A DNA stretch of 64,000 nucleotides from Flavobacterium sp. H122 (GTDB lineage Bacteria; Bacteroidota; Bacteroidia; Flavobacteriales; Flavobacteriaceae), in NCBI RefSeq assembly GCF_004959765.1, contig NZ_SJZD01000001.1:496001-560000 (forward strand), read 5' to 3'. The notes beneath the pieces are model-generated. The model did no database searches. It saw only the letters and a list, made by a program, of their open reading frames with translations, and had not been told where the DNA came from. Of the stretch, positions 6,027-48,728 are shown one piece after another. The position numbers were made by a program, and so were the translations under genes. Numbering within the stretch: position 1 is the stretch's first letter; every line of letters starts with the position of its first letter.

Positions 6027-6866
6027 ATGAAAAAATTAATCCTACTCTCATTACTTTTTGGATTGTTTAATGTTTATTCTCAAAAAGTATTCGACACGCA
6101 TATTCATGGTGAATCAGACCCAAACATGCAAATGCGCCAATTGGAAAATTCCGGTGTTTACAAGGCAGGCATCAGCACTTCCTGGGAACTGCAGGACACT
6201 TATAGGGATAAATACAAAATCGAATTACTATATGGATTAATGCTGCCATGTCCAAATGGAAAAGTCCCGTATGGCAACCGTCTTTGTTTTTCGGATGGAA
6301 AAGAATTCCCGGATATCAAATGGACAGAGCGTCAGATTATTCATGGAAAAATTGATTTCATTGGAGAAATATTAAGCCAGTATTACGGAATTTCACCATC
6401 AGATGAATTATTATACCCGTATTATGCATTAGCTGAAAAATACAATCTTCCTGTTGGTATTCATACAGGATTGGCAGGCCCCGGTCATGGTTGTCCAAAT
6501 TTTAAAGTAAGTTTAGGAAGTCCCATCTTAATGGAAGATTTAATACTGAAATTTCCGAAGTTAAAAATCTGGATTATGCATGCGGGCAGTCCTTTTTTAG
6601 AAGAAACTATTGGTATTATGAGTGTCTATCGAAATGTGTACACCGACATTTCCGTTATTTCAAATCCATACATAGTTTCCCACAAAGATTTTTACGCTGT
6701 CATGAAAAGATTAATCGATGCCGGATTAGAAAACAGATTAATGTTTGGATCCGATAATGGCGATATCAAACAAGCAATCGAATCGGTAAATAAGCTTGAC
6801 TTTTTATCTTCAGAACAAAAAGAAAAAATATTCTACAAAAATGCAGAAGAATTCTTTAAAAAATAA
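6027..6866 (+). CDS. exported amidohydrolase (amidohydrolase_2 type)
   Basis: 279 residues from ATG 6027; in-frame codons further upstream belong to repeat H. Residues 1-19 form a signal peptide ending YSQ, so the enzyme is periplasmic or anchored. Metal-ligand motifs of the amidohydrolase TIM barrel follow: D23-T-H25-I-H27, then GIHTGLAGPGHG, IMHAGSP and the C-terminal FGSDNGD aspartate. The substrate is unknown; the family includes decarboxylases and lactonases. The gene is bracketed by copies of the same 165-bp repeat, which suggests it arrived or moved as a unit. Confidence 0.8.
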   Translation: MKKLILLSLLFGLFNVYSQKVFDTHIHGESDPNMQMRQLENSGVYKAGISTSWELQDTYRDKYKIELLYGLMLPCPNGKVPYGNRLCFSDGKEFPDIKWTERQIIHGKIDFIGEILSQYYGISPSDELLYPYYALAEKYNLPVGIHTGLAGPGHGCPNFKVSLGSPILMEDLILKFPKLKIWIMHAGSPFLEETIGIMSVYRNVYTDISVISNPYIVSHKDFYAVMKRLIDAGLENRLMFGSDNGDIKQAIESVNKLDFLSSEQKEKIFYKNAEEFFKK

Positions 6867-6920
6867 AAAGCACAACCGTTAACTGCAGTTTTTTTTTATT
6901 TCAATACATCCCTTAAACTT

Positions 6921-7088
6921 GAATGGTTTAAAAGGAAGAAAGATTTCATGAAATGCCTGGATTCAAATTTTCCGAAAAGAACTTTATGTCCATTTTCTGC
7001 ATTTAATTAAGCTTTTTCTTTCAACTTCGGTATATTTGTGAGTAACAATAAAAAAAAGTCGGCGCTGTATAAAGCCGGCGGAGCAGTA
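6921..7088 (+). repeat. degenerate cassette-site repeat I (right copy)
   Basis: Second copy of the repeat at 5795-5966, diverged but collinear. It carries TTTCATGAAATGCCTGG, ATTTAATTAAGCTTTTTCTT, TATATTTG at 7031-7038 and GCCGGCGGAGCAGTATC at 7074-7090. No CGTT core is left. It precedes the acetyltransferase gene by about 35 bases. The rest of 6867-7122 holds no gene. Confidence 0.6.
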
Positions 7089-7122
7089 TCATAAATTTTA
7101 CCGTAAAAAATCAACATAAATA

Positions 7123-7659
7123 ATGAAAGTCGAATCCCTGAAAATTGATAAACTAACAACTGAAAGATTAATACTTATTCCATTTACAATTCCAGTTTGC
7201 AGGAATATATTGAATGAGAATTATAGTGATTTGGATAGTTGGAATTTAAAAAAAGGGAAAAGCTGGCCTGACAATGATGTGATTGAAACATTACCAAGAA
7301 TAATTAACAACTTATTAAAAGTTGAATCTCCAACAGGTTTTGAATCCTGGATGATAATCAAAAAAGAGACCTCAGAAATAATAGGGGATCTAGGATTTAA
7401 AGGGTTCAATTATAAAGATCAAAGCGTTGATATTGGTTATGGAATAATTAAAGAAGAAAGAAGAAAAGGATACGCTGAAGAGGCTGTAAAAGAAATTATT
7501 AAATGGGCTTTTTCAAATGAAATTGTAAAAGAAATTACCGCTAACTGTTTAATAGAAAATACAAACTCCGTAAATCTGCTCACAAAATTTAATTTTATAG
7601 AATTAAGGACGGAAAATAATATGATTTACTGGACTTTAGAAAACAAGAATTTTAAATAG
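7123..7659 (+). CDS. GNAT family N-acetyltransferase (RimJ-like)
   Basis: 178 residues. The N-terminal LTTERLILIPF is the first strand of RimJ/RimL-type GNAT enzymes. The acetyl-CoA binding segment is IGYGIIKEERRKGYAEEAVK, with R-R-x-G-Y-A as the pyrophosphate loop. The C-terminal part, NCLIENTNSVNLLTKFNF, is the usual helix and strand that follow. The acceptor is not known; relatives acetylate protein N termini, antibiotics or small amines. It stands alone, pointing away from the cassette region, and is the last plus-strand gene of the island. Confidence 0.85.
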   Translation: MKVESLKIDKLTTERLILIPFTIPVCRNILNENYSDLDSWNLKKGKSWPDNDVIETLPRIINNLLKVESPTGFESWMIIKKETSEIIGDLGFKGFNYKDQSVDIGYGIIKEERRKGYAEEAVKEIIKWAFSNEIVKEITANCLIENTNSVNLLTKFNFIELRTENNMIYWTLENKNFK

Positions 7660-7828
7660 AATCAATACCAACAATGATAACTGTTACACAACCACTATTT
7701 CCTAAAAAATCAAAAACATAAACTATGAACTGGATAAAAAACGGCTGCTGATCAGACTCTATCCAAAAAAACATGTAAGCTTACAGCTCTTTTATTTTAA
7801 CAACCTTACTTGCGAGAGAATTATTTTT

Positions 7829-8563
7829 CTATCCTGCAAATGCCAGCCTTATAAATTTCAATTTGTTGCTTTTATACTCGAACTGCCAATTGTACATAAA
7901 CTCATCTTCCGAATGATAGTCGGTAAATTCATTCAAGTCCTCAATAATTTCTGAATGGTTCATGAAACTATAAAACAAATTTATCTGATCTCCTTCTATT
8001 GATAGTTTATAAACAATTTTTACAAATCCGTTATCAGCAATTACACTGTTCTGTCCTTTGTTTTTATAATAGTTTACATCGTCAAGGTTGATTCTGTTTA
8101 AAACTTCTTTCAATGATTTAGCCTCATCAGCCTGATTTTGCTTTTCGTACATAAAAGCATATTTAGATTTCAAACCATTTAATTCACCCGACAAAACAAG
8201 TTCTTTAAATGCTTTCAACTGGTTGATCAGTTCTTCCTGATTTTGTTTGAGGAGCCTGATTCTTTCCTGAAAGGCTTTTATATTTTGTTTTTCTATTTCG
8301 TTAAATGAAACATTTTTATTGTTTCCTTTTGATTTGTACCAGGATTTTTGTTCAAAATAATCCTGAAACCTCGAATTTTCAAACTGATAACCATTTCTTG
8401 CAAAAATTTCATTGGTCAGCAATCTGATTTCATCAATGCTCAAATCTTTTATTTTTTCCGGTTTTACAATTTGTGCCGAACATACTGCACAATCTTTCAA
8501 CACCTGGGCATTCAGGTTTAGAGACAGTAACAAAAACAAAAATACCATTCGGGTTGTTTTCAT
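7829..8563 (-). CDS. exported YARHG-domain protein
   Basis: 244 residues with a signal peptide ending NLNAQ at about residue 19, then a CxxC pair (CAVC). Residues about 40-95 fit the YARHG domain: EIRLLTNEIFARNGYQF followed by FQDYFEQKSWYK, an extracellular domain of unknown function often found near peptidases or in small envelope proteins. The rest is coiled and then beta-rich. Its ATG overlaps the stop of the upstream gene as ATGA, so the two are translationally coupled. The short gap 7660-7828 before it holds no recognisable feature. Confidence 0.75.
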   Translation of the reverse strand: MKTTRMVFLFLLLSLNLNAQVLKDCAVCSAQIVKPEKIKDLSIDEIRLLTNEIFARNGYQFENSRFQDYFEQKSWYKSKGNNKNVSFNEIEKQNIKAFQERIRLLKQNQEELINQLKAFKELVLSGELNGLKSKYAFMYEKQNQADEAKSLKEVLNRINLDDVNYYKNKGQNSVIADNGFVKIVYKLSIEGDQINLFYSFMNHSEIIEDLNEFTDYHSEDEFMYNWQFEYKSNKLKFIRLAFAG

Positions 8564-9187
8564 TTCTTTTTACATTGATTAATAATTGTATCCGTTTTTA
8601 TTTCCTCATCATTTTGAAAATATCTCAAAATACCTAAACAGTTAATTGTATCATTTTCGCAGAATCGGATATCAAATTCTGCAATTCTGTATTCATAATA
8701 ATGCTCAAGAAGTTCACTGCTGAATCCGCCCGGGTCTTCTTCGTGGTCTATAAAATGCTGTGTTCCTGCTTCTCCAAACGGATTTGTTCCCCAGCCTTTA
8801 GAATATTCATAGAAACTCAGGCAATAATACAAATCTGTTCCTGAAGGTGATGAAGAACTGTACTCATACTTTGATTTGTATTTATTCTCATTGCCTGTAA
8901 ATTCATTATTCACTTTTTGAATAACCATTTTTTTGATTGCTTCATGTAAGGAATCACGATTGTAAATTGGATTTTTCACAAGATACAGATCCGGATATAC
9001 TTTTGACTGGATAAATTCCATTTTCGTAAAAAAGACAAAATCAATAATTTTTACCAAAATCAACAGTCCTATTATCGCAAATGTCCATTTGACCCTTGTT
9101 TTCTTTTTACTTATCCAGACGATTATCCGGTAAAAAAAAATAGAGCATTAAAAAAAACAATGCTCCTAATAACACTATAAATATCAT
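8560..9187 (-). pseudogene. membrane-anchored protein gene with a frameshift in a T9 tract
   Basis: The main frame (9063 down to 8560) lacks an ATG at its start and begins inside a membrane helix. An ATG at 9187 opens another frame, MIFIVLLGALFFLMLYFF, which stops after 26 residues. A run of nine T (plus-strand A9 at 9132-9140) joins them: with eight T the product continues into RIIVWISKKKT, then a second helix (TFAIIGLLILVKIIDFV) and a soluble domain of about 150 residues. The intact protein would have two helices and about 208 residues. Its stop overlaps the YARHG gene start. Either the tract is variable, the gene is broken, or the assembly has one extra base. Confidence 0.6.
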
Positions 9188-9249
9188 TTCAACGCTCCTT
9201 TTTGGGTATAGACAGATTTTGCGAAATTTCTCCGGCTTACAACTTTAAT

Positions 9250-10275
9250 TTACATTGCTACTTTAGGCAGAATATCCATTACATACTCGTGCATAACCTG
9301 ACGGTAATCCAAATGCGTTACCATACGCATCTTACCCTGTCCCATAGAGCTGATATGAATCCCTTTGACTTTCAATTTTTCAATAATCACTTTTTCATCA
9401 AGATACGATTGAATACTAAAAATAACAATATTGGTTTCCACAGGTTCTACCCCGGCAACCCATGGTAACTGCTGCAACATATAAGCCAACTCCTTAGCTC
9501 TATGATGATCAACCGCCAATCTTTCAATATGGTTATCCAAAGCATAAATACCCGCTGCGGCCAAATAACCCGCCTGACGCATTCCTCCTCCAAAAACTTT
9601 ACGGATGCGTAACGCTCTTTTTATTGTTTTTGCATCAGAAATTAAAACTGATCCCACCGGTGCTCCCAAACCTTTAGACAAACACACTGAAATGGTGTCA
9701 AACAGTTCTCCGAATTGTCGTGGAGATTGTTTCTTTGCAACTAAAGCATTCCATAAACGGGCTCCGTCAAGATGGTATTTTAAGTTATTTTGTGTGCAGA
9801 CCTGCTTAATCTCTTTTAATGTTTCAATTTCATAACAGGCTCCCCCGCCTTTGTTGGTTGTATTTTCAATACTTACCACACTTGTTAAAGGAGCATGAAA
9901 AAATTCAGGGTCATTAATAGCTTTTCTTACCTGATCTGCAGTTATCATCCCTCTGTTTCCATCAATTAAACTCAATGAACAACCGCTGTTAAAAGCCGTC
10001 CCTCCTGCTTCATACAGATAAATATGCGACCATTTGTCACAAATTATTTCGTCTCCCGGCTGTGTGTTTAATTTCAATGCTGCCTGATTTGCCATAGTCC
10101 CGGAAGGAAAAAACAATGCTGCTTCCATACCAAACATTGTGGCTGCTTTTTGCTCTAAAGCATTTATTGTCGGGTCTTGTTTATATACATCATCACCTAC
10201 TTTTGCACTAAACATAGCGTGCAGCATTTCCTGCGTAGGTTTGGTTACGGTATCACTTACCAAATTTATTTCCAT
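9250..10275 (-). CDS. ltaE: low-specificity L-threonine aldolase
   Basis: 341 residues, a normal length. This PLP enzyme cleaves L-threonine or allo-threonine to glycine and acetaldehyde. Visible motifs: the N-terminal NLVSDTVTKPT, FFPSGTMANQ before the cofactor phosphate site, the HLDGARLWNA aspartate region that holds the pyridine ring, and CLSKGLGAP with the Schiff-base lysine. Cytoplasmic. It stands alone on the minus strand, divergent from prfB. The family call is secure; stereospecificity cannot be read. Confidence 0.9.
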   Translation of the reverse strand: MEINLVSDTVTKPTQEMLHAMFSAKVGDDVYKQDPTINALEQKAATMFGMEAALFFPSGTMANQAALKLNTQPGDEIICDKWSHIYLYEAGGTAFNSGCSLSLIDGNRGMITADQVRKAINDPEFFHAPLTSVVSIENTTNKGGGACYEIETLKEIKQVCTQNNLKYHLDGARLWNALVAKKQSPRQFGELFDTISVCLSKGLGAPVGSVLISDAKTIKRALRIRKVFGGGMRQAGYLAAAGIYALDNHIERLAVDHHRAKELAYMLQQLPWVAGVEPVETNIVIFSIQSYLDEKVIIEKLKVKGIHISSMGQGKMRMVTHLDYRQVMHEYVMDILPKVAM

Positions 10276-10315
10276 ATTCTAAAACACACCAATATTTGTA
10301 GGGTTTTTAACACAT

Positions 10316-10350
10316 AAATATCACTAATTTTGGTGATATTTCTTTTTTTT
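10316..10350 (+). terminator. hairpin with T-run in the ltaE-prfB gap
   Basis: AAATATCAC (10316-10324) pairs with GTGATATTT (10333-10341), followed by CTTTTTTTT. It looks like a terminator but lies between two divergent genes, so it may instead be an attenuator-like element ahead of prfB or a leftover. No known riboswitch fold was recognised. Confidence 0.4.
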
Positions 10351-10456
10351 ATATTTTAGCTTTCTTTTTATACTCAGAAAAAATCTGAAATAAATATTTT
10401 TAGAAATTTCTAAAAATCAAATTCATAAATATAAACATCAAAATTATAAAAATTCT

Positions 10457-11552
10457 ATGACAAATACCGAACAAATTAAAGGTATTGTAGAGCGCCTGGG
10501 TGCGTTGAGGAGGTATCTTTGACATTGATGCCAAATTAATCGAAATCGCTAACGAAGAAGAAAAGACTTTTGCTCCTGATTTTTGGAACAAGGCTAAGGA
10601 AGCCGAAGTTATTGTCCGTAATCTCCGCTCAAAGAAAAAATGGGTAGAAGATTATGAAAAAGCGGTAAATCTTGCTGATGAACTTCAAATTGCCTATGAT
10701 TTCTTCAAAGAAGGTGATTTAAGTGAAGAGGAATTAGATGATTTATTCGAAACTACCAATACCCATATCGAAAACATTGAATTTAAAAACATGCTTTCTG
10801 ACGAAGGTGACTCAATGAGTGCTGTACTGCAGATTACCGCAGGTGCCGGTGGTACCGAAAGTTGTGACTGGGCAAGTATGCTTATGCGAATGTACCTGAT
10901 GTGGGGTGAGAAAAACGGCTATAAAGTTAAAGAACTGAATTTTCAGGAAGGTGATGTAGCCGGTATTAAAACCGTTACCCTGGAATTTGAGGGTGATTAT
11001 TCTTTTGGTTATTTAAAAGGTGAAAACGGTGTACACCGATTGGTAAGAATTTCTCCTTTTGACAGTAACGCCAAACGCCACACATCATTCGCTTCGGTAT
11101 ATGTATATCCGTTGGTCGATGATACGATTGAAATTGCTATCAGTCCTGCTGACATTGAAATTACTACTGCCCGTTCAAGCGGTGCCGGAGGACAAAATGT
11201 AAATAAAGTTGAGACAAAAGTCCAGTTATTGCACAAACCAACCGGAATTCAAATTCAGTGTTCAGAAACCCGTTCGCAACATGATAACCGTGAACGCGCC
11301 ATGCAAATGCTACGTTCGCAGTTATATGAAATTGAGTTGAAAAAACGACTGGAACAACGTGCCGATATTGAAGCCGGCAAAATGAAAATTGAATGGGGCT
11401 CGCAAATACGCAATTACGTTATGCATCCATACAAATTAATTAAAGATGTCAGAACACAATACGAAACCAGCGATGTGGACGGTGTTATGAATGGAAATTT
11501 AGATGAGTTTTTAAAAGCTTATTTAATGATGATGGGACAAAAAGAAAGCTAA
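10457..11552 (+). CDS. prfB: peptide chain release factor 2 (programmed +1 frameshift)
   Basis: The first 21 codons (10457-10519) end at an in-frame TGA at 10520. Skipping one T there joins 343 more codons, giving 364 residues, the usual RF2 length. The tripeptide SPF that reads UGA/UAA codons is at residues 199-201, and the GGQ that triggers peptidyl-tRNA hydrolysis at 244-246. RF2 ends translation at UGA and UAA. Autoregulation is expected: low RF2 makes the ribosome pause at TGA and shift. Annotation tools that start at an internal ATG would lose the N-terminal third. Confidence 0.95.
10508..10523 (+). promoter_or_regulatory. RF2 programmed frameshift site
   Basis: AGGAGGTATCTTTGAC at 10508-10523 contains an internal Shine-Dalgarno sequence (AGGAGG), three bases before the CTT slip codon and the TGA stop. 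This is the classical bacterial prfB signal. The ribosome slips from CTT to TTT and continues with GAC. A strong Shine-Dalgarno here is notable because genes in this window rarely show one at their start. Confidence 0.95.
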
Positions 11553-11569
11553 CTTTAAATATTTTTGAT

Positions 11570-12370
11570 ATGCATTTAAAGAGATATTTTGATAACGAAG
11601 AATGGAAAGAAGTGGATTTGAAATCTCCTTTTAAGGAAAAATACAAGCTCTTCATCTCTAATTATGGAAATTTGAGAAAAATCGATTTAAATACTAACGA
11701 GGAAAAAAATATTTCTCAAGCAACAACCGAAGGCTATCCTTCTTTTAATTTTTCGGTCTTTTCACCTCATACTGAAGAAGACTTGAAATATCTTACCGAG
11801 GAAAGAGCAAGAATTGCAGGTATTAAAAAAGAAATCACTTTACTTAAAAGAGATTTAAAAACCTGTGACGGAAAAGATGCCCGCTTTTATGATATTTCGA
11901 GAGCTATTGATGCAGTTGAAGTCAGACTTGAAACAGTTAGAAAAAAGTACAATTCGAGATTGCGCAAAATTGAAAACGGAAGAAGAAAAAGCTTTGGCAC
12001 ATTAACCCATCGTTTAGTGGCATTGCATTTTGTTGGACAGCCTTCAAAAAAACACAATTTTGTTGCTCATCTTGATTTTGATAAGTCCAACAATCATCAT
12101 TCTAATCTAAAATGGATGACGATGGAAGAAAACATTAAACATCAGCAGGACAGTCCGTATGTAATTAAAGCCAAAGCGCTTGCAAACATTAACCGTCCCA
12201 TTCGAATCACACGTTCCAAATTAACCATTCATCAGGTTATGGTTATTAAAAAGAGAATCAATGAGAATATTCCTTTGAGTAAATTGGCAAAACGATACAA
12301 AGTATCAGAAACACAATTACTCAGGATAAAAAGAGGAATCAATTGGGGAAATATAGCTCCTGCAAAATAA
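11570..12370 (+). CDS. NUMOD4/HNH endonuclease-like protein with C-terminal HTH
   Basis: 266 residues in three parts. Residues about 10-60 (EEWKEVDL, LFISNYGNLRKI) fit a NUMOD4 DNA-binding module. A coiled segment of about 60 residues follows. Residues about 140-190 (THRLVALHFVG, VAHLDFDKSNNHHSNLKWMT) fit an HNH_3 nuclease motif with His and Asn ligands. A C-terminal helix-turn-helix (LSKLAKRYKVSETQLLRI) closes it. Such combinations occur in homing endonucleases and phage proteins. It sits 17 bases after prfB and ends in its own terminator, so it is probably co-transcribed with RF2. Its role is unknown. Confidence 0.75.
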   Translation: MHLKRYFDNEEWKEVDLKSPFKEKYKLFISNYGNLRKIDLNTNEEKNISQATTEGYPSFNFSVFSPHTEEDLKYLTEERARIAGIKKEITLLKRDLKTCDGKDARFYDISRAIDAVEVRLETVRKKYNSRLRKIENGRRKSFGTLTHRLVALHFVGQPSKKHNFVAHLDFDKSNNHHSNLKWMTMEENIKHQQDSPYVIKAKALANINRPIRITRSKLTIHQVMVIKKRINENIPLSKLAKRYKVSETQLLRIKRGINWGNIAPAK

Positions 12371-12404
12371 AAAAGTGCCGATTTTGATAATCGGCACTTT
12401 TTTA
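12371..12404. terminator. bidirectional terminator
   Basis: AAAAGTGCCGATT (12371-12383) and AATCGGCACTTTT (12389-12401) form a perfect 13-bp stem with a 5-base loop, flanked by A and T runs. It serves the convergent HNH and DoxX genes. Confidence 0.85.
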
Positions 12405-12423
12405 TAATTTAAATTCACATTTT

Positions 12424-12846
12424 CTATTGCTGCATTTTGAAATAATAATCAGCCGAATGTTTACCGCTTCCGTAAAACAGGAAGAAAACACTAATGCACA
12501 GCAGTAAAAATGAAAGTATTAAGTTTCCAACATTCATTTCAAAAGTAAAATTTACTAAGAAAGCCCCAAGCAAAATAGGAATTTGTGCAATAATTGCCCA
12601 TCGGGTCAATAATCCGAAAACAATCATTACCCCTCCCATCATGTGAGCTGCCATAACATAATGTACAATCAGCATTCCTCCTCCTAAACTTTTAATGGGC
12701 TCAATTAATTGATTATAATATTCTGTATTTGTCATAAAGGAAACTCCTTTCCAAAAAAGAAATATTCCCACAACAATACGCAATATATCCAATGGATAAG
12801 AGGTATGGGCATTTGCCCACTTGTTTAAACTTTTAACAGTTTCCAT
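12424..12846 (-). CDS. DoxX family membrane protein
   Basis: 140 residues with four hydrophobic helices. The segment LDILRIVVGIFLFWKGVSFM at the N terminus and the glycine-rich MMGGVMIVFGLLTRWA helix are typical of the DoxX/DUF417-like family. These inner-membrane proteins are linked to thiosulfate:quinone oxidoreductase or redox stress in some species, but most have no assigned role. Single gene, convergent with the HNH gene. Family call good, function open. Confidence 0.8.
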   Translation of the reverse strand: METVKSLNKWANAHTSYPLDILRIVVGIFLFWKGVSFMTNTEYYNQLIEPIKSLGGGMLIVHYVMAAHMMGGVMIVFGLLTRWAIIAQIPILLGAFLVNFTFEMNVGNLILSFLLLCISVFFLFYGSGKHSADYYFKMQQ

Positions 12847-12909
12847 AGTTTCCTAGTTTAGAATTTTACTTCTAATTTACTAAAAAACAAATAATTAATA
12901 AGTTAAAAA

Positions 12910-14538
12910 TCAGTATTTTATATAAAAAGCCAATTTATCAGGCTGAATATCATTTACCGATTTAATTTTAGTTCCTGCCTTTGTCCATTCGTTAGTAGCG
13001 TTAACCCTTACTTTTCTGCCTTTTATATTCAAATCAACCGGCATGGCAAAATCAGGCTCTTCTGTTTTCCATCGAATTTCGAATGAATCACCGTTTTTTC
13101 TAATTTCCAACTCAGGAATAGAAGTATATCTAAGATATTGATTAAACACAGGAGTTAAATTTATTCCTGATTCTTTGTTAAAGAAATCAACTACCTGCTG
13201 GTTTGTTACGATTTGTTTTTTGAATGTTTCCGAGTATTTTAAAATCAATTTCCACCATTTAGCATCATCATTAATAATGTGTCTGATTGTGTTGAGCATT
13301 AACGCTCCTTTTGGATACATATCGCCGCTGCCTTCTTTGTTAACTCCGTAATGACCAATAATCGGTCTGTCATTATTAACATTGTTACGAAGTCCGTATG
13401 CATATGCCATGGCTTTTTCATAACCAAACTGACACTCAACAAATACAATTTCAGAATACTGTGTAAATCCTTCATGAATCCACATATCAGCGATATCCTG
13501 ACTCGTAATACTGTTTCCAAACCATTCATGCCCGCTTTCGTGAATAGTGATGTAATCAAAAAGAAGACCAATGCCCGTCCCCGACAAATCATTTCCAAGA
13601 TATCCCTGCAAATAATGGTTTCCGTAAGCTACTGCGCTTTGATGTTCCATTCCCAGATAAGGGGTTTCAACCAATTTATAACCATCTTCAGAAAATGGAT
13701 ACTTTCCAAATTTTGACTGAAAACAGTCCATCATAGGCTTTACTTCTTCAAAATGTTTACGCGCTTTTGCTTCATTAGCTCTTAAAACATAATAATCCAG
13801 ATCCAGTCCTTTATGACTATCATGGATATGGGCATAATCAGCAATATTTATCGTAATATCGTAGGTATTAATTGGGTTTTTAACCTCCCAATCCCAACGT
13901 GTATAACCATTTTTTAAATTTTCACTGCCAAGAAATCTGCCGTTGGACACATTCATCAATCCGTTGGGTACTGCTACTTTTACAGAAGCACCAAAATCAG
14001 GCTCATCACTTTGAGAGTCTTTTACAGGAAACCAGCTACTCGCACCAAATCCCTGACAAGCCACTCCTATCCAGGGTTTTCCGGCTGTATCTTTACTAAA
14101 AACAAAACCGCCGTCCCATGGCGCTCGTTTTGCAATAACCGGTTTACCCGAATAATAAAAACGGATTGTATGTCCACTGCCTTTTTGCAATACTTCAGGA
14201 AACTGAATAAAAGTTGCTATTAATTCTCTATTGAACTGCAGTTTTTTATTGTTGTAAACAATACTGTCAATCTGCATATTCTCAAATAGATCGATTTGAA
14301 TTCTAGACGTATTGTCAACCACTTTAAAAGTAATGTCGTTATATCCTGTAATTGATTTTTCATCAGAATTGATTTTAATATTCAAATCATAACGCTGTAC
14401 ATCGAAGCTGGTACGTTCAGGACGCAAGCCACCCTGCAATGTGTCGCGGCGTGTAAAAACTTCTTTAGCAACAGTCAGCTGTGCTGTTCCAATATTAAAA
14501 TTGCAGAATACGGTTAAAGCAAGTATTAATTTCTTCAT
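12910..14538 (-). CDS. exported M1 family metallopeptidase
   Basis: 542 residues with a signal peptide ending GTAQ. The zinc site of gluzincins is intact: HESGH at residues 333-337 and the third ligand Glu356, 18 residues later. Upstream, ETPYLGMEHQSAVAYG carries the GxMEN-like substrate loop, here GMEHQ rather than GAMEN. At 542 residues it lacks the long C-terminal helical domain of classical aminopeptidase N and matches the shorter Bacteroidetes forms. It is probably a periplasmic aminopeptidase. Transcribed alone; the gap upstream carries a terminator for the carboxylase gene. Confidence 0.88.
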   Translation of the reverse strand: MKKLILALTVFCNFNIGTAQLTVAKEVFTRRDTLQGGLRPERTSFDVQRYDLNIKINSDEKSITGYNDITFKVVDNTSRIQIDLFENMQIDSIVYNNKKLQFNRELIATFIQFPEVLQKGSGHTIRFYYSGKPVIAKRAPWDGGFVFSKDTAGKPWIGVACQGFGASSWFPVKDSQSDEPDFGASVKVAVPNGLMNVSNGRFLGSENLKNGYTRWDWEVKNPINTYDITINIADYAHIHDSHKGLDLDYYVLRANEAKARKHFEEVKPMMDCFQSKFGKYPFSEDGYKLVETPYLGMEHQSAVAYGNHYLQGYLGNDLSGTGIGLLFDYITIHESGHEWFGNSITSQDIADMWIHEGFTQYSEIVFVECQFGYEKAMAYAYGLRNNVNNDRPIIGHYGVNKEGSGDMYPKGALMLNTIRHIINDDAKWWKLILKYSETFKKQIVTNQQVVDFFNKESGINLTPVFNQYLRYTSIPELEIRKNGDSFEIRWKTEEPDFAMPVDLNIKGRKVRVNATNEWTKAGTKIKSVNDIQPDKLAFYIKY

Positions 14539-14743: not shown

Positions 14744-16387
14744 TTACACTTGTATCACTCCTAAATTAAATGGCTTTTCTATTGGCGCATGATTTGCAGC
14801 TTCAATCCCCATAGAAATCCAGGTTCTGGTTTCAAGCGGATCTATAATTGCATCTGTCCACAAACGGGATGCTGCATAATAAGGTGAAACCTGTTCGTCG
14901 TAACGTGATTTTATTTTATTGAATAATTCTTCTTCTTTTTCCGGAGTGATCTCCTCCCCTTTAGCTTTTAAGGAAGCAGCCTCAATCTGCATTAACACCT
15001 TAGCAGCCTGTGCACCGCCCATAACAGCAAGTTCAGCACTTGGCCACGCAAAAATCAATCGCGGATCATACGCTTTTCCACACATGGCGTAATTTCCGGC
15101 TCCGTATGAATTTCCAACCACAACGGTAAATTTAGGCACTACAGAATTAGCCACCGCATTTACCATTTTAGCACCATCTTTAATAATTCCGCCGTGTTCC
15201 GATTTTGAACCTACCATAAAACCAGTTACATCATGAACGAACACCAATGGAATTTTCTTTTGATTACAATTCGCAATAAAACGAGTTGCTTTATCAGCCG
15301 AATCTGAATAAATAACGCCTCCAAACTGCATTTCACTTGGTTTTGTTTTAGCTCCGGTTGTTTTGGCAATCAAACGTTGATTCGCTACAATTCCTACTGC
15401 CCAACCATCAATGCGTGCATAACCTGTGATAATGGTTTGTCCATAACCAGCTTTGTATTCATCAAATTCTGAATTATCAACCATACGTTTGATAATTTCC
15501 ATCATATCATATTGTTCGGCACGTGATTTAGGCAAAATTCCGTAAATATCTTCTGGATTCAGAGCTGGTTTTTCAGACTTAACTCTATTATAACCGGCTT
15601 TGTCAAAATCACCCATTTTACCTACAATACTTTTGATTCTGTCCAGAGCATCTTTGTCATCTTTAGCTTTGAAATCGGTTACACCCGAAATTTCGCAATG
15701 TGTTGTAGCTCCTCCCAATGTTTCGTTATCTATCGTTTCACCGATAGCCGCTTTAACCAAGTAACTTCCCGCCAGGAAAATACTTCCGGTTTTATCTACA
15801 ATTAAAGCTTCATCACTCATTATAGGCAGATAAGCACCACCAGCAACACAACTTCCCATAACTGCAGCGATTTGAGTAATTCCCATACTGCTCATAATAG
15901 CATTGTTTCTGAAAATTCGTCCGAAATGTTCTTTATCCGGGAAAATTTCGTCCTGCATTGGTAAATAAACACCAGCAGAATCTACTAAATATATAATAGG
16001 CAATCTATTTTCGATAGCTATTTCCTGCGCTCTTAAGTTCTTTTTAGCGGTAATAGGAAACCAGGCACCTGCTTTTACTGTAGCGTCATTTGCCACCACA
16101 ATACACTGTTTACCTTTTATATAACCTATTTTTACAACAACTCCACCACTTGGACACCCCCCATGTTCCTTATACATTCCATCACCAACAAAAGCACCTA
16201 TTTCGATTGATTTTTCATCATTATCCAACAAATAATCAATACGTTCACGGGCTGTCATTTTGCCTTCGGCATGTAGTTTTGCTATTCTTTTTTCACCCCC
16301 GCCAAGTTTAACTTTTGCCAGGCGCTGTCTTAATTCTGAAAGTAAAAGTTTGTTATGATCTTCGTTTTTATTGAAGTTTAAGTCCAT
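14744..16387 (-). CDS. acyl-CoA carboxylase carboxyltransferase (beta) subunit
   Basis: 547 residues, the size of methylcrotonyl- or propionyl-CoA carboxylase beta chains. The N half has GKMTARERIDYLLD and GGCPSGGVVVKIGYI; the two crotonase-like domains carry SAGVYLPMQDEIFPD and MGSCVAGGAYLPIMSDEA in the first and FVHDVTGFMVGSKSE and VVGNSYGAGNYAMCGKA in the second, which form the acyl-CoA and carboxybiotin pockets. The AGGAYLP and SAGVYLP forms favour methylcrotonyl-CoA carboxylase (leucine breakdown). No biotin carboxylase or biotin carrier gene lies nearby, so its alpha partner must be elsewhere. Substrate is an inference. Confidence 0.85.
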   Translation of the reverse strand: MDLNFNKNEDHNKLLLSELRQRLAKVKLGGGEKRIAKLHAEGKMTARERIDYLLDNDEKSIEIGAFVGDGMYKEHGGCPSGGVVVKIGYIKGKQCIVVANDATVKAGAWFPITAKKNLRAQEIAIENRLPIIYLVDSAGVYLPMQDEIFPDKEHFGRIFRNNAIMSSMGITQIAAVMGSCVAGGAYLPIMSDEALIVDKTGSIFLAGSYLVKAAIGETIDNETLGGATTHCEISGVTDFKAKDDKDALDRIKSIVGKMGDFDKAGYNRVKSEKPALNPEDIYGILPKSRAEQYDMMEIIKRMVDNSEFDEYKAGYGQTIITGYARIDGWAVGIVANQRLIAKTTGAKTKPSEMQFGGVIYSDSADKATRFIANCNQKKIPLVFVHDVTGFMVGSKSEHGGIIKDGAKMVNAVANSVVPKFTVVVGNSYGAGNYAMCGKAYDPRLIFAWPSAELAVMGGAQAAKVLMQIEAASLKAKGEEITPEKEEELFNKIKSRYDEQVSPYYAASRLWTDAIIDPLETRTWISMGIEAANHAPIEKPFNLGVIQV

Positions 16388-16539
16388 AGTTAATTTTAGT
16401 TGTGTAAATATTTTGTATTTTTGAGTGGCTAAAATACAAAAAGCAATTCAATCATTCTGCCCGAATTTTCCTTAAAAATTTCTTTACAATCTTAATATGT
16501 TTTTCATGTTATGTTAATGATTTCTTAACATTGGAAATA

Positions 16540-16547
16540 TACTTTTG
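16540..16547 (+). promoter_or_regulatory. -7 promoter box of the phosphate cluster
   Basis: TACTTTTG fits TAnnTTTG and lies 23 bases before the DUF47 start. No convincing -33 element was found. The rest of the 16388-16563 gap shows nothing else. Confidence 0.5.
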
Positions 16548-16569
16548 CCACATCAAAATTTATATGATT

Positions 16570-17214
16570 ATGAACCTAAACAGTATCTTTCAATTTTTAG
16601 TACCAAAAGACACTAAATTCTTTCCTTTATTTGAACAAGCAAGCAGTACGCTTGTTGTTTTAGCAGAAACGTTACACGAAGCTGTTAATGCTCCTAAAGA
16701 AGAAAGAGACAGCTATTTTCAAAAAATTGAAGAATTAGAAAATAAAATTGAAGGAATAGCACACAAAACTCAATTAGAGTTAAGTAAAAACTTCATCACT
16801 CCGTTTGACAGAGAAGACATCAACGCATTAATCAAATCTATTGACAACGTAGCAGACAATATGCACGGTGCGGCAAGCAGAATGCGTTTATATCAGGTAG
16901 AAAAAATCACAAAGTCAATCCGTAAATTAACTGAAATTAACTTAGAAGCATGTCAATTAATTGACAAAGCAGTTAAAGAGTTAAAAGACTTAAAAAATCA
17001 CCAATCCATCAAAGGAATTTGTAAACGTATAAACAAATTGGAAAGTAAAGGTGATGTAGTTTTTGATAAAGCTGTTGCTGATATTTTTGAAAACGAATCT
17101 GATGCAATTAAAGTAATTAAGTATAAAGAAGTACTTTCTGCACTTGAAATGGCATCTGACAGATGTAAAGGCGTTTCAAACGTAATCGAACAAATATCAG
17201 TAAAACACTCTTAA
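16570..17214 (+). CDS. DUF47/PhoU-like phosphate transport accessory protein
   Basis: About 215 residues from ATG 16570 (ATG 16564 is also possible; a TTG frame opening at 16531 is rejected because it covers the promoter box). The protein is all-helical: FFPLFEQASSTLVVLAETL, KIEELENKIEGIAHKT, a TPFDREDINALIKSIDNVAD segment and a C-terminal helix MASDRCKGVSNVIEQI. This is the PhoU-like fold of DUF47 proteins, which accompany PiT transporters and probably control them. The PiT gene begins 22 bases downstream, so the pair forms an operon. Confidence 0.88.
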   Translation: MNLNSIFQFLVPKDTKFFPLFEQASSTLVVLAETLHEAVNAPKEERDSYFQKIEELENKIEGIAHKTQLELSKNFITPFDREDINALIKSIDNVADNMHGAASRMRLYQVEKITKSIRKLTEINLEACQLIDKAVKELKDLKNHQSIKGICKRINKLESKGDVVFDKAVADIFENESDAIKVIKYKEVLSALEMASDRCKGVSNVIEQISVKHS

Positions 17215-17236
17215 TTACCGTACTTCGGTTTAAATT

Positions 17237-18556
17237 ATGACTTTATTAATTATCATTATCATATTAGCCTTAATATTTGACTATATTAATGGTTTTCATG
17301 ATGCAGCAAACTCCATTGCAACCATTGTTGCAACTAAAGTTTTAACTCCGTTTCAGGCGGTATTATGGGCTGCATTTTTCAACTTTCTTGCCTATTGGGT
17401 TTTTGGTTTTGGTGTTGCTGATACAGTAGCAAAAACAGCTAAAACTTCAAGTATAGATTTAGTAGTAATCCTTGCAGGAATTATTGCGGCCATCATTTGG
17501 AATTTATTCACCTGGTGGAAAGGTATACCTTCTTCGTCATCACACACGTTGATTGGTGGATTTGCAGGAGCTGCTCTGGCACACGGTTTTTCTGGAAACG
17601 TAACGGATCCTGATCATTACGGGTTTGGTATTGTTAACTGGTTTAAAGCTGCCAAAGAAGGTGAATTGCTACCTAGCGGTGTTTTAGTCGTAATTGCATT
17701 TATTGCTCTTGCTCCGCTTGTAGGGATGCTGATTTCCTATTTAGTCTCGCTTTGGTTCATGTATTCTGCAAAGAAAAGCATCTATCCTAAAATTTTTACC
17801 GTAACATTTTTAGTGTCTACAGTTTGGTTTTTAGCAACTGTAATGAAAGGATACGATAAAATTAAAAAACCACGTTTTGAATCCCATTTCTGGAGTGTGG
17901 CTGCAGAGCCTGAAAACATCAAATGGCTATTGGTAGGATTTATCATTTTTGCTTTAGGAACTATATGTTTATTATTCAGCAGTTTTTCAGCAGGTAAAGC
18001 GGAAACCATACTTAAAAAAACACAGTTATTATCATCAGCTGCTTTCAGTTTAGGTCACGGTGGTAACGATTCACAAAAAGTAATGGGTATTATTGCTGCC
18101 GCTGTAGCTGTTTATATTAATACTTCCGGTATTGATGTATTGCAAATGCCTGAATGGTTACAGGTAGTACTGCCTAATGAAGAAAAAGGAATTAAAGCTC
18201 AAATGCCAGAATGGATCCCTTTAGCATGTTATACGGTGATTGGTCTGGGTACCTTAAGCGGTGGATGGAAAATCGTTAAAACAATGGGTTCTAAAATCAC
18301 TAAAGTTACAGCTTTTGAAGGTGTAGTAGCCGAATCAGCAGGTGCGTTGACATTATTTATCACTGAACACTTTAAAATTCCGGTATCAACTACACACACA
18401 ATCACTGGTTCAATCATAGGTGTAGGAGTTACAAAACGTGTATCGGCTGTAAGATGGGGAGTAACAGTAAACCTATTATGGGCATGGATTTTAACCATTC
18501 CGGTATCAGCTTTATTAGCTACAATAACTTATTTTATTTTAAGAATATTTTTATAA
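17237..18556 (+). CDS. PiT-type inorganic phosphate transporter
   Basis: 439 residues with about ten membrane helices. The two inverted-repeat PiT signatures are present: FDYINGFHDAANSIATIVAT near the N terminus and SLGHGGNDSQKVMGI in the second half, each with the conserved Asp and Asn of the phosphate and cation site. SSSSHTLIGGFAG and VSTTHTITGSIIG are the matching helix-hairpin motifs. It imports phosphate with Na+ or H+ across the inner membrane. DUF47 lies upstream; a terminator follows at 18579. Confidence 0.92.
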   Translation: MTLLIIIIILALIFDYINGFHDAANSIATIVATKVLTPFQAVLWAAFFNFLAYWVFGFGVADTVAKTAKTSSIDLVVILAGIIAAIIWNLFTWWKGIPSSSSHTLIGGFAGAALAHGFSGNVTDPDHYGFGIVNWFKAAKEGELLPSGVLVVIAFIALAPLVGMLISYLVSLWFMYSAKKSIYPKIFTVTFLVSTVWFLATVMKGYDKIKKPRFESHFWSVAAEPENIKWLLVGFIIFALGTICLLFSSFSAGKAETILKKTQLLSSAAFSLGHGGNDSQKVMGIIAAAVAVYINTSGIDVLQMPEWLQVVLPNEEKGIKAQMPEWIPLACYTVIGLGTLSGGWKIVKTMGSKITKVTAFEGVVAESAGALTLFITEHFKIPVSTTHTITGSIIGVGVTKRVSAVRWGVTVNLLWAWILTIPVSALLATITYFILRIFL

Positions 18557-24578: not shown

Positions 24579-24601
24579 CATTATACAATTACAAAAAGAA
24601 A

Positions 24602-24658
24602 ATGAACAACATTTTAAACAATACTTGGTGGTGGAACAACTTACGTCAAACGTCGTGA
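24602..24658 (+). CDS. trpL: trp operon leader peptide
   Basis: An 18-residue ORF reading MNNILNNTWWWNNLRQTS, with three consecutive Trp codons at 24626-24634. It sits between the promoter and a terminator directly ahead of trpE, so it acts as a sensor rather than a working protein. Ribosomes that stall at the Trp codons when charged tRNA-Trp is scarce would prevent termination downstream. The GTCGTGA at its stop codon complements TCACGAC in the terminator. Confidence 0.9.
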   Translation: MNNILNNTWWWNNLRQTS

Positions 24659-24699
24659 GCGGTACCAGCTATGTAGTAGTTTAAACAAAATATATACTC

Positions 24700-24733
24700 A
24701 AAGGGCTTGTCAATCACGACAAGCCCTTTTTTA
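24700..24733 (+). terminator. trp attenuator terminator
   Basis: AAGGGCTTGTC (24701-24711) and GACAAGCCCTT (24718-24728) form a perfect 11-bp stem with a 6-base loop and T-run. TCACGAC at 24714-24720, covering the loop and the first bases of the right arm, is a 7-nt complement of GTCGTGA at 24652-24658. That pairing would disrupt the terminator. Confidence 0.88.
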
Positions 24734-24758
24734 TTGTCCAAAATTGAAATTTGAAAAA

Positions 24759-45311: not shown

Positions 45312-46682
45312 CTAAATTCCATATTTATCAATCAGATAAATCAAAGAAGTCATGGTTGCCGCCCCCAATTCCAGTTCTCTTTTATTAACAGCATCAAACT
45401 TGTCATTAGCGGCATGATGGTAATCAAAATAACGCTGTGAATCCGGTCTCAAACCAGCCTTTACAATTCGTTTGGAAGTTAAATCCTGTATATCGGAACC
45501 GCTGTGGCCTTTTACAAAACTATGGATTAAATAAGGCTCAAAAAGTGATTTCCATTGAATAATTTTAGTGAAACTTGCCTCATCACCTTCCAAAGCAAAT
45601 CCTCTCGGGGTAAATCCGCCCGAATCACTTTCCATTGCAAAAATGTGATTCTCGTTATTTTTTAAAGACAATTCCTGATATTTGTCGCCACCACGGCCTC
45701 CGTTTTCTTCATTCATAAACATAACCACGCGAATGGTATTCTTTGGCTTATAACCTATATTTTTAAAAATATTAGCCACTTCCATACTTTGCACGCAACC
45801 GGCACCATCATCGTGAGAACCGTCAGCCAAATCCCATGAATCAAGATGACCGCCAACTACCATAATGTTTTCAGGGGTTTCAGAACCTTTAATCTCGCCT
45901 ATTACATTATATGACAACACATCTGCTTCCTGACGGCAGGATTGTTTGAAATAAAAAGTCAGATGCGGGTTTTCTTTCAACTGCTTACTTAAAAGTTCTG
46001 CTCCGTTTGTACTTATTGCGACCGAAGGAATACGCTGTTCCAAAGAAATATCACCATAATTAGTTCCTCCTGCATGAGGAAAATCATCCAGTCTAAAATT
46101 AAGCGAACGGACTATAACTCCCACTGCGCCGTATTTTGAAGCTTCTTTAGCCCCGGATCTGCGTTGGTCACCTGCATCACGGTAAGAATGAAATGCTTCG
46201 ATATTTGCAGGATTCATCGGGCGGTTAAAAAAAACTATTTTTCCTTTTATTTTTTCTGCCCCCAGTTTTTCCAATTCTTTCAGTGTCTGCACTTCAATAA
46301 CTTCTGCTGTAACACCGCTTTTTGAAGTTGCAATACTTCCTCCTAAAGCACAAATAGGCACTTTTATTTTCTTTCCCTGTACTTTAATAAAAGCTTCCTC
46401 TTTTTCTCCCCTGATCCACTTAGGCACCATTACTTCCTGCAGATACACCTTATCAAAATTTCCTGAGGCCTCCATTTGAGATTTTGTATACTGTACTGCT
46501 TTTTCAGCTCCCGAAGAACCTGACAAACGATGTCCGATTGTATTTGACAAATAATCCAATTGAGAGTAACACTTGGAATTGGTTAAAGCCTGATTATAAA
46601 TTGCTTTTAACTGGTCTTCATCCGAATTTTGTGAAAAACCTAAAGCACTGACAAAAATGAATAATGGAAGAATTGATTTCAT
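45312..46682 (-). CDS. exported M28 family zinc peptidase
   Basis: 456 residues, signal peptide ending GFSQ. A protease-associated (PA) domain occupies about 110-250 (AVGVIVRSLNFRLDDFPHAG). The two-zinc site follows: GGHLDSWD (His, Asp), DDGAGC, MNEENGGRGGDKY (Glu pair), MESDSGGF and FDYHHAAND (His). The enzyme is a periplasmic or secreted aminopeptidase. Single gene. A 13-bp inverted repeat lies upstream at 46749. Confidence 0.9.
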   Translation of the reverse strand: MKSILPLFIFVSALGFSQNSDEDQLKAIYNQALTNSKCYSQLDYLSNTIGHRLSGSSGAEKAVQYTKSQMEASGNFDKVYLQEVMVPKWIRGEKEEAFIKVQGKKIKVPICALGGSIATSKSGVTAEVIEVQTLKELEKLGAEKIKGKIVFFNRPMNPANIEAFHSYRDAGDQRRSGAKEASKYGAVGVIVRSLNFRLDDFPHAGGTNYGDISLEQRIPSVAISTNGAELLSKQLKENPHLTFYFKQSCRQEADVLSYNVIGEIKGSETPENIMVVGGHLDSWDLADGSHDDGAGCVQSMEVANIFKNIGYKPKNTIRVVMFMNEENGGRGGDKYQELSLKNNENHIFAMESDSGGFTPRGFALEGDEASFTKIIQWKSLFEPYLIHSFVKGHSGSDIQDLTSKRIVKAGLRPDSQRYFDYHHAANDKFDAVNKRELELGAATMTSLIYLIDKYGI

Positions 46683-46875: not shown

Positions 46876-46912
46876 ACAAAAGAGGCTGTCTCAATAGGAC
46901 AGCCTCTTTGTT
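46876..46912 (-). terminator. terminator of the small peptide gene
   Basis: AAAGAGGCTGTC (46879-46890) and GACAGCCTCTTT (46898-46909) form a perfect 12-bp stem. On the minus strand it lies 52 bases after the stop of the 54-residue peptide and is followed by T-rich sequence. Confidence 0.8.
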
Positions 46913-46963: not shown

Positions 46964-47128
46964 TCATGGGCAGTATTGACCACTGCTTACCCATAAAGTA
47001 CAAATTAAGTTGCCGTTAGCATCATAATCGTACTCGCAACATCTTCTGAATCCTGCTCCAACAATTGACTGCTGTTCAGATTTACTCAAGTTTTTTGCAC
47101 CTGCTAAATTTGAAAGATTTTTAATCAT
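46964..47128 (-). CDS. 54-residue Cys-containing peptide with bacteriocin-type leader
   Basis: ATG at 47128 opens a 54-codon frame. Residues 1-26 (MIKNLSNLAGAKNLSKSEQQ then SIVGAG) look like the leaders of Bacteroidetes bacteriocin-like peptides, which typically read KNLS-L-GA-LSK-EQ-SI-GG. Cleavage would follow GAG, where a double glycine is usual. The core FRRCCEYDYDANGNLICTLW and VSSGQYCP has four Cys. It has its own terminator. No maturation enzyme or peptidase-ABC transporter is nearby. Export and activity are inference. Confidence 0.65.
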   Translation of the reverse strand: MIKNLSNLAGAKNLSKSEQQSIVGAGFRRCCEYDYDANGNLICTLWVSSGQYCP

Positions 47129-47267
47129 AATTTTTTGGTTGTTAGGTTAATAAAAAAATTATGACGTAAATCTAAGAAACCTTAAAATAAAAAAATTACG
47201 GTTTTTCCGTAAAAAATCTTAAAATTTAAAATTCAAAAAAGCCTGTTTTTACACAGGCTTCATTTGA

Positions 47268-48728
47268 TTATTTTAATGGAATATTCTGCAAAATTTCCAA
47301 TACGAATTTCCAATATTTTTGAGCAGATGAAATACTTGCTCTTTCATCAGGACTATGAGCACCTTTGATAGTAGGTCCAAAAGAAATCATATCCATATCA
47401 GGATAATTCGTTCCTAAAATACCACATTCCAAACCTGCATGACAAGCTACAACATGAGCTTTAGAGTCATTTTGTTTTTCATAAATAGAAGTCAGAACAT
47501 CAAGAATAGGAGAATTAACATTAGGCGTCCATCCTGGATAAGAACCTGTAAAATTCACTTCACAGCCAAACAGCTCAAAAGCTGAACGCAATGCATTAGC
47601 CAAATCAAATTTTGAGCTTTCTACAGATGAACGGGTTAAATTTTGAATAGAAATCTGTCCTTCTTTAACAATTACTCTCGCAATATTATTAGAAGTTTCC
47701 ACCAAGTTGTCCATATCCGCACTCATACGGTACACACCATTGTGAGCTGCATAAATGGTACGCAACAAACCTTCCTGAACTCCTAAATCCATAACTTTAG
47801 TAGGTAGATCTCCTTTTTCTATTAAAATTTGAAGATTAGGCTCAGTAGTTTTGAATTCGGTTTTAATATCGTTGATTACTTCCTGCATATCAAACACAAA
47901 AGCTTCATCATACATTCCTGCGATAATTACTTTTGCCACACTCTCACGAGGAATCGCATTACGCAAACTGCCTCCATTGATTTCAGAAATCTGCAGACCA
48001 AAATTTTCAAAACCATCAAACAATAAACGGTTCATAATTTTATTGGCATTTCCTAAACCTTTGTCAATATCCATTCCTGAATGACCTCCCATCAGCCCTT
48101 TTATAGTAATAGTATACCCTACTGAACCTTCAGGAGTTTCTTCCTCGTTATATTCTCTTTCAGCAGTTACATCTACACCACCGGCACATCCTATATCAAT
48201 TTCATCGTCTTCTTCCGTATCTAAGTTTAAAAGAATCTCACCTGAAAGTAATCCTCCTTTTAATCCCATGGCACCCGTCATACCTGTTTCTTCATCAATA
48301 GTAAATAAAGCTTCAATAGCAGGATGAGGAATATCTGTACTTTCTAAAACAGCCATGATAGTTGCAACACCAAGTCCGTTATCAGCACCTAAAGTAGTTC
48401 CTTTAGCACGAACCCAATCACCATCAACATACATTTCAATACCCTGAGTATCAAAATCAAATACCGTATCGTTGTTTTTTTGGTGTACCATATCCAAATG
48501 CGACTGCATTACTATGGTTTTTCTATTTTCCATTCCAGCTGTTGCCGGTTTTTTAATAATTACGTTTCCTACTTCGTCTTTAATAGTTTCCAGACCTAGT
48601 TTTTGTCCGAAATCCATCATAAAAGCAATAACACGTTCTTCTTTTTTTGAAGGACGGGGCACCGAATTCAAGTCGGCAAACTTGTTCCAAAGTGCTTTTG
48701 GTTCAAGGTTTCTTATTTCCTGGCTCAT
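47268..48728 (-). CDS. pepD: aminoacyl-histidine dipeptidase (M20)
   Basis: 486 residues, the usual PepD (carnosinase-like) size. Metal ligands of M20C enzymes are in place: SHLDMVHQKNND (His, Asp), KGTTLGADNGLGVA (bridging Asp), TIDEETGMTGAMGL (catalytic Glu and ligand Glu), LNLDTEEDDE (Asp), and a C-terminal GPTIKGAHSPDE (His). It splits X-His and other dipeptides in the cytoplasm. Single gene. Confidence 0.93.
   Translation of the reverse strand: MSQEIRNLEPKALWNKFADLNSVPRPSKKEERVIAFMMDFGQKLGLETIKDEVGNVIIKKPATAGMENRKTIVMQSHLDMVHQKNNDTVFDFDTQGIEMYVDGDWVRAKGTTLGADNGLGVATIMAVLESTDIPHPAIEALFTIDEETGMTGAMGLKGGLLSGEILLNLDTEEDDEIDIGCAGGVDVTAEREYNEEETPEGSVGYTITIKGLMGGHSGMDIDKGLGNANKIMNRLLFDGFENFGLQISEINGGSLRNAIPRESVAKVIIAGMYDEAFVFDMQEVINDIKTEFKTTEPNLQILIEKGDLPTKVMDLGVQEGLLRTIYAAHNGVYRMSADMDNLVETSNNIARVIVKEGQISIQNLTRSSVESSKFDLANALRSAFELFGCEVNFTGSYPGWTPNVNSPILDVLTSIYEKQNDSKAHVVACHAGLECGILGTNYPDMDMISFGPTIKGAHSPDERASISSAQKYWKFVLEILQNIPLK

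What the first reader, a model, noticed from the sequence alone, without database searches (positions are those of the whole stretch)
46964..47128. Unannotated RiPP/bacteriocin-like peptide
A 54-residue gene with a leader ending SIVGAG, four Cys in the core and its own terminator lies in a gap where gene finders often call nothing. The GAG ending departs from the usual GG. With no transporter nearby, a peptidase-containing ABC exporter elsewhere would be needed.
Basis: partly seen in the sequence, partly recalled or inferred. Interest (0 to 1): 0.6.

Follow-up and report, generated by a model that had tools for sequence, protein, structure and literature searches.

The report
Stand-alone secreted cysteine-rich peptide gene
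A real but small gene in a Flavobacterium genome encodes a peptide that is probably cut and exported by a bacteriocin-type transporter encoded elsewhere in the same genome; it is a new member of a known kind of secreted peptide, and what it does outside the cell is untested.

Summary
The 54-codon ORF at 46964-47128(-) is a genuine gene. A leader model built without it ranks it first of 1754 window frames (E 9e-7). Five further genomes or bins carry full-length orthologues (61-83% identical) under purifying selection (dN/dS 0.08-0.18 in the 9 of 15 pairs with unsaturated dS), near the same dipeptidase gene in 6 of 6 loci. The leader motif is not 'GAG': G24-A25 aligns with the GG of cluster paralogues, an ordinary Gly-Ala variant; residue 26 varies. 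The missing exporter exists: contig C23 holds a C39-peptidase ABC transporter, HlyD adaptor, two VKOR proteins, an AraC/TPR protein and ten peptides with this leader. Peptide and exporter lie on different contigs or 2.2 Mb apart in 5 of 5 genomes where both were placed. Best reading: a 29-residue, four-Cys, probably disulfide-bonded peptide matured and exported in trans, bacteriocin-like or signalling. No modifying enzyme lies beside it. Its promoter carries a composite element found 4-8 times per genome in four genomes, none on contig C23. Novelty: new member of a known kind; the stand-alone arrangement and separate promoter are the interesting part.

The parts
46964..47128 (-). Peptide precursor gene, 54 aa, stop at 46964-46966
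47054..47128 (-). 25-residue leader MIKNLSNLAGAKNLSKSEQQSIVGA, predicted cleavage after Gly24-Ala25; L(-12), E(-8), I(-4), G(-2), A(-1)
   Evidence: alignment with cluster leaders; many leader matches in other genomes end at position 25; GA variant and L(-12)/E(-8) consensus in PMC6363468 (passages)
46967..47053 (-). 29-residue core GFRRCCEYDYDANGNLICTLWVSSGQYCP, four Cys, possible beta-hairpin
   Evidence: hairpin from a low-confidence model
47196..47223 (-). Promoter element TTTAAG-N9-GG-N5-CCGTAA with palindrome ACGGAAAAACCGT at 47198-47210
   Evidence: conserved upstream of orthologues; 27 sites in 4 genomes against 1 for the reversed pattern
47167..47174 (-). -7-like box TAGATTTA (consensus TAnnTTTG), 21 nt after CCGTAA
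   Evidence: consensus from PMC9723704 (passages)
46879..46909 (-). Terminator-like hairpin after the gene (also readable on +)
47238..47261 (-). Terminator-like hairpin between the upstream dipeptidase gene and the peptide promoter
47268..48728 (-). Dipeptidase gene (beta-Ala-His dipeptidase family TIGR01893, Peptidase_M20), the conserved upstream neighbour
   Evidence: 86-92% identical homologue upstream of the orthologue in the other five loci

Best explanation
The gene encodes a precursor of a secreted, cysteine-rich peptide of the double-glycine (here Gly-Ala) leader type. Inferred steps: the 25-residue leader docks on the C39 domain of the ABC exporter encoded on another contig (G000:C23), the leader is cut after Ala25, the 29-residue core leaves through exporter, HlyD adaptor and an outer-membrane channel, and the VKOR proteins of the same cluster join the four cysteines into two disulfides, perhaps stabilising a beta-hairpin. 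Outside the cell it acts as a bacteriocin-like antagonist or as a signal between cells; I lean slightly to antagonist (about 55:45). It is transcribed alone from a promoter with an activator-type palindromic element that was not found on the exporter's contig. Shown here: the gene is real and selected, the leader is shared with the cluster peptides, exporter and oxidase genes co-exist with it. Not shown: cleavage, export, disulfides, activity.
For: Leader shared with ten C23 cluster peptides. Exporter with C39, ABC membrane and ABC ATPase domains above Pfam cut-offs, HlyD adaptor and two VKOR proteins above cut-off (the thioredoxin domain is above cut-off in one VKOR protein, just below in the other). 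Cys, His and Asp that I take to be catalytic (motifs recalled) are invariant in 7 of 7 C39 domains aligned. The 4 orthologue carriers among 398 genus genomes all have the exporter, which 137 of 398 have (P 0.014); F. humi has it at 86%. All 43 cores examined have 4 or 6 Cys. dN/dS 0.08-0.18 in nine pairs (ratios).
Against: No direct evidence of processing, export or activity. The sixth orthologue's record (a MAG labelled Limnohabitans) has only a 42% identical exporter-type match, though that contig may be misplaced. G392 has a 92% identical exporter and no orthologue, so the exporter does not depend on this peptide. No curated family matched the peptide above cut-off. Four carriers are few and related, so the co-occurrence is weak evidence. 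The exporter was not shown to recognise this leader, and other C39 exporters in the genome were not looked for.
Confidence: 0.75

Rival explanations
1. A conserved extracellular signal (pheromone) or community factor rather than a killing peptide, like the Gly-Gly/Gly-Ala peptides that act in Synechococcus biofilms. It shares the export route of the best explanation and differs in what the peptide does.
For: One orthologue in each of the four carrier genomes, conserved core, net charge -1.3 to +0.8; the genes downstream differ between the four loci compared, so no conserved immunity-type partner is seen; its own promoter element. Gly-Ala motif and biofilm role of EbfG peptides in PMC4997328 (passages).
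Against: Two cluster cores are about as conserved: 0.69-0.93 identity in three of the four other carrier genomes (0.21 in the fourth), and 0.59-0.86 in all four, against 0.62-0.72 for the window core, so conservation does not single this one out. No receptor was identified.
Confidence: 0.4
2. A RiPP whose core is enzymatically modified (for example thioether or ester rings) before export.
For: Leaders of this type are used by many RiPPs (PMC6363468, passages); Ser, Thr and Cys are present in the core.
Against: No modification enzyme beside the gene or among the five larger C23 cluster genes scanned; even Cys counts in 43 of 43 cores and VKOR partners suggest disulfides. The rest of the genome was not scanned for such enzymes.
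Confidence: 0.08
3. A relic: the precursor is translated but no longer exported, kept only by descent.
For: Not found in the eight exporter-bearing genomes inspected: nothing in 1.5 kb downstream of the dipeptidase gene and no full-length match genome-wide.
Against: dN/dS 0.08-0.18, frame intact in 6 of 6 loci, conserved promoter element.
Confidence: 0.05
4. A chance ORF in an intergenic gap.
For: Mechanical ORFs of 40-60 aa are common here.
Against: Orthologues, leader match and codon-position pattern.
Confidence: 0.01

Closest known systems
Bacteroidetocins (PMC6671954, passages)
   Same: Bacteroidota; leader predicted to be cut by an ABC exporter with double-glycine peptidase domain; four Cys in bacteroidetocins A and B; a thiol oxidoreductase with the exporter
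   Different: There a four-gene region holds peptide, oxidoreductase, exporter and membrane protein together, leaders are 15-16 aa ending in GG and mature peptides 42 aa (the two first studied); here the gene stands alone, leader 25 aa ending in GA, core 29 aa. Core similarity was not tested.
EbfG1-4 of Synechococcus elongatus (PMC4997328, passages)
   Same: Small GG/GA-motif peptides secreted with the help of a C39-family peptidase protein; one member has Gly-Ala
   Different: The four genes are encoded together (locus tags suggest next to the peptidase gene); no sequence relation was tested
NCBIfam bacteriocin-type leader families (NF047798 leader_Chryseo, TIGR01847, NF047792)
   Same: Six of the ten C23 cluster peptides match one of these or another GG-leader family weakly, below cut-off
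   Different: The window peptide matches none of them

Membership tests
Double-glycine-leader (PCAT substrate) peptides | Leader ending in GG, GA or GS with L(-12), E(-8) and a hydrophobic residue at -4 | tested here: met
   L14, E18, I22, G24, A25; features from PMC6363468 passages. Position -7 is Gln, not Leu, as in 8 of the 10 C23 cluster peptides
Double-glycine-leader (PCAT substrate) peptides | A C39-peptidase ABC exporter in the same genome | tested here: met
   L011:15033-17243; on another contig than the peptide gene
Double-glycine-leader (PCAT substrate) peptides | Cleavage after the GA and export | not testable with these tools
   needs biochemistry
Bacteroidetocins | Peptide gene beside exporter, thiol oxidoreductase and membrane protein | tested here: not met
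   neighbours are M28-type peptidase and dipeptidase genes
Bacteriocin | Kills or inhibits related bacteria | not testable with these tools
   needs an assay
NCBIfam/Pfam bacteriocin families | Match above curated cut-off | tested here: not met
   one unrelated NCBIfam match (TIGR01643) below cut-off, no Pfam match
Enzymatically modified RiPP | Modification enzyme with the precursor | tested here: inconclusive
   none beside the gene or among the five larger C23 cluster genes scanned; genome not scanned

The most novel reading that the evidence does not exclude
The stand-alone peptide is the message of a signalling circuit: its promoter belongs to a small regulon, marked by TTTAAS-N9-GG-N5-CCGTAA-N20/21-TAnnTTTR, that in relatives also includes a sensor kinase and small lipoproteins and, in this genome, a tandem array of seven near-identical RNA-like units and a divergent eighth; the peptide is matured in trans by the bacteriocin-type exporter, with a catalytically dead C39-like domain on the VKOR protein holding the leader while disulfides form.
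Probability: 0.1. Interest if true: 0.75.

Novelty: new member of a known kind. Interest (0 to 1): 0.4.

Why it matters
Precursor genes of this kind are usually looked for beside their exporters. Here a selected precursor sits away from its likely exporter in the five genomes where both were placed, under its own promoter, so such peptides may be undercounted in Flavobacterium. If the peptide is a signal between cells, it and its promoter element would make that directly testable.

Tried and rejected
Chance ORF: rejected. 'GAG' as a new cleavage motif: rejected, residue 26 varies and G24-A25 aligns with GG. Genome-wide enrichment of the bare palindrome ACGGNNNNNCCGTA: not seen in the own genome (20 rows against 15 for the reversed control; 11 distinct places, five of them in one tandem array). 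Only the longer composite element is clearly above control, and its spacing N9 was the upper limit allowed, so longer spacings were not examined. Relation of the VKOR N-terminal domain to the exporter's own C39 domain by hhalign: weak (E 0.015, probability 2.9, shallow alignments); Pfam finds Peptidase_C39 in 11 of 11 members at E up to 1, best 1e-5, and above the gathering score in one of the two own full-length copies, barely (22.5 against 22). Structure model: mean pLDDT 63, so only the hairpin tendency is used. Rfam near the gene: 15 matches, all below gathering scores, taken as chance; none in eight loci with the promoter element. Paper searches for VKOR with C39 and leader peptides found no paper, nor did the palindrome as a string; some searches gave the papers cited or nothing closer. 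These cover only the open-access library held. Fold search was not used.

Full report
What is there. The ORF at 46964-47128 on the minus strand translates to a 54-residue peptide with four cysteines at 30, 31, 43 and 53. It lies alone between a dipeptidase gene (47268-48728; TIGR01893, 558 bits against a cut-off of 344) and an M28-type peptidase gene (45312-46682), with terminator-like hairpins on both sides. The start codon has A at -3, -6 and -12 (read), three of the four positions reported as favourable in F. johnsoniae (PMC6847099, passages).

It is a gene. A 25-column profile built only from the ten leaders of the C23 cluster ranks it first among 1754 window frames, E 9.3e-7, the next being 1.8. 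In 398 genomes of its genus, 34 had a match at E up to 0.01; four of them (own genome included) are full length at 69% or more; one of the 34 (G388) has four stops inside and is spurious; most of the rest cover mainly the leader. Over 15 pairs of six orthologues dN is 0.09-0.28; dS is 0.89-2.28 in nine pairs and saturated in six; the third codon position is the most changed in all 15. A dipeptidase homologue (86-92%) lies upstream in the five other loci, directly so except in G194, where two genes lie between. Eight further genomes with exporter and dipeptidase gene have no such peptide within 1.5 kb downstream and no full-length match elsewhere.

Wider family. An alignment of six orthologues and the two contig C46 peptides matched 27 of 397 genomes of the family at E up to 0.001, mostly through the leader. 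One relative in another genus (L107, G575) has a similar core pattern, CCEW...C..WV; its relation was not tested further.

The leader. The six orthologues have I-[VI]-G-A at 22-25, followed by G, A, R or V. G24-A25 aligns with GG of the cluster peptides; of 43 peptides from six genomes, residues 24-25 are GG in 29, GA in 10, GK in 2, and AG and GS in one each. PMC6363468 (passages) lists Gly-Gly, Gly-Ala and Gly-Ser as the motif, with L(-12) and E(-8); both are present.

The exporter. Region G000:C23:213000-232900 (L011) holds two VKOR proteins (6597-8228, 12385-13959), ten peptides MLKNIL..., an AraC/TPR protein (10108-11877), a C39-ABC exporter (15033-17243) and an HlyD protein (17246-18544). 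Two more stand-alone peptides with GA or GS leaders and a CCEYNY core lie on contig C46 (L012). The exporter is present at E up to 1e-250 in 137 of 398 genus genomes; the four orthologue carriers all have it (P 0.014). Of the 34 genomes with any match, 30 have it (P 1.6e-11), but many of those matches lie in exporter clusters and genomes are related, so this P is not an independent test. F. humi has it at 86%; the MAG record has only a 42% match. Peptide and exporter are on different contigs, or 2.2 Mb apart in G194, in the five genomes G000, G194, G098, G186 and F. humi. G392 has the exporter at 92% and no orthologue.

The core. Fifteen of 30 alignment columns are invariant, RRCCE, DY, CT, WVS, Q and CP in order among them; F. 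humi lacks three residues between the second and third Cys, as a hairpin loop would allow. AlphaFold from five sequences gives a leader helix 16-23 and strands 27-35 and 41-49, mean pLDDT 63: a hint only. All 43 cores have 4 or 6 cysteines, which with the VKOR genes argues for disulfides. The window core is 0.62-0.72 identical to its orthologues; two cluster cores are about as conserved.

The VKOR proteins begin with a C39-like domain (11 of 11 at E up to 1 in Pfam; first member from profile position 20 on, which would leave out the catalytic Cys, position recalled) with no invariant Cys. A dead peptidase domain that holds leaders is an inference; hhalign support is weak.

The promoter. GGAAAAACCGTAA stands upstream of four orthologues; the MAG has GGAAAAACCGTATT and F. 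humi GGGAAATCCGTAA. The composite TTTAAS-N9-GG-N5-CCGTAA occurs 8, 8, 4 and 7 times in G000, G194, G098 and G186 against 1, 0, 0, 0 for the reversed pattern; all 27 have N9, the largest of the spacings 6-9 allowed. Four of the eight own sites are repeats of one array. A box TAnnTTT[GA] follows at 20 or 21 nt in 21 of 27 sites; 25 of 27 lie outside frames of 120 codons or more. A stricter pattern, searched in three genomes without the own one, gave seven matches, all at 21 nt with 10-22 allowed, none in the control. If the box lies at -12 to -5 as in F. psychrophilum (PMC9723704, passages), the palindrome is centred near -41, as for class II activators (recalled). Genes downstream are mixed: of six proteins scanned, YfbU domain, histidine kinase, lipoprotein and PurK-like, two without a family. 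No own-genome site lies on contig C23.

Verdict. A real, selected, stand-alone precursor of a known kind of secreted peptide, most likely served in trans by a distant exporter. Bacteriocin versus signal remains open.

Noticed in passing
L073 (G000:C1:651,000-654,000, outside the window), minus strand: Seven near-identical ~313-nt tandem units plus a divergent eighth, each beginning with a promoter-like element of the type found before the peptide gene (4 match the composite pattern exactly) and ending in a terminator-like hairpin; no Rfam match. Looks like a tandem array of small RNA or small-peptide genes.
   Followed up: partly
L134-L160 (four Flavobacterium genomes): A spacing-exact promoter element TTTAAS-N9-GG-N5-CCGTAA-N20/21-TAnnTTTR before unrelated genes; regulator unknown; some sites have no ORF of 50 codons or more close downstream.
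   Followed up: partly
L011:6597-8228 and 12385-13959: Fusion of a C39-like domain lacking the usual catalytic residues, VKOR and a thioredoxin-like domain, beside a GG-peptide exporter.
   Followed up: partly
L012:8678-8878 and 9137-9331 (G000:C46): Two more stand-alone peptides with GS/GA leaders and a CCEYNY core resembling the window peptide; no exporter in the fetched 14 kb.
   Followed up: partly
L011:11882-12136(-): An 84-aa ORF inside the exporter cluster with SIKGG near residue 27 and no Cys, on the opposite strand; no NCBIfam match. Possibly a different kind of precursor.
   Followed up: partly
window 24582-24711(+): Bacteroidete tryptophan peptide leader RNA (Rfam RF01692), with a 471-aa ORF starting at 24744; ordinary.
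   Followed up: no
L078 (JASGCW010000060.1): A contig filed under a Limnohabitans MAG carries Flavobacterium-like genes (dipeptidase 92% identical to the window's), probably a binning or labelling error.
   Followed up: no
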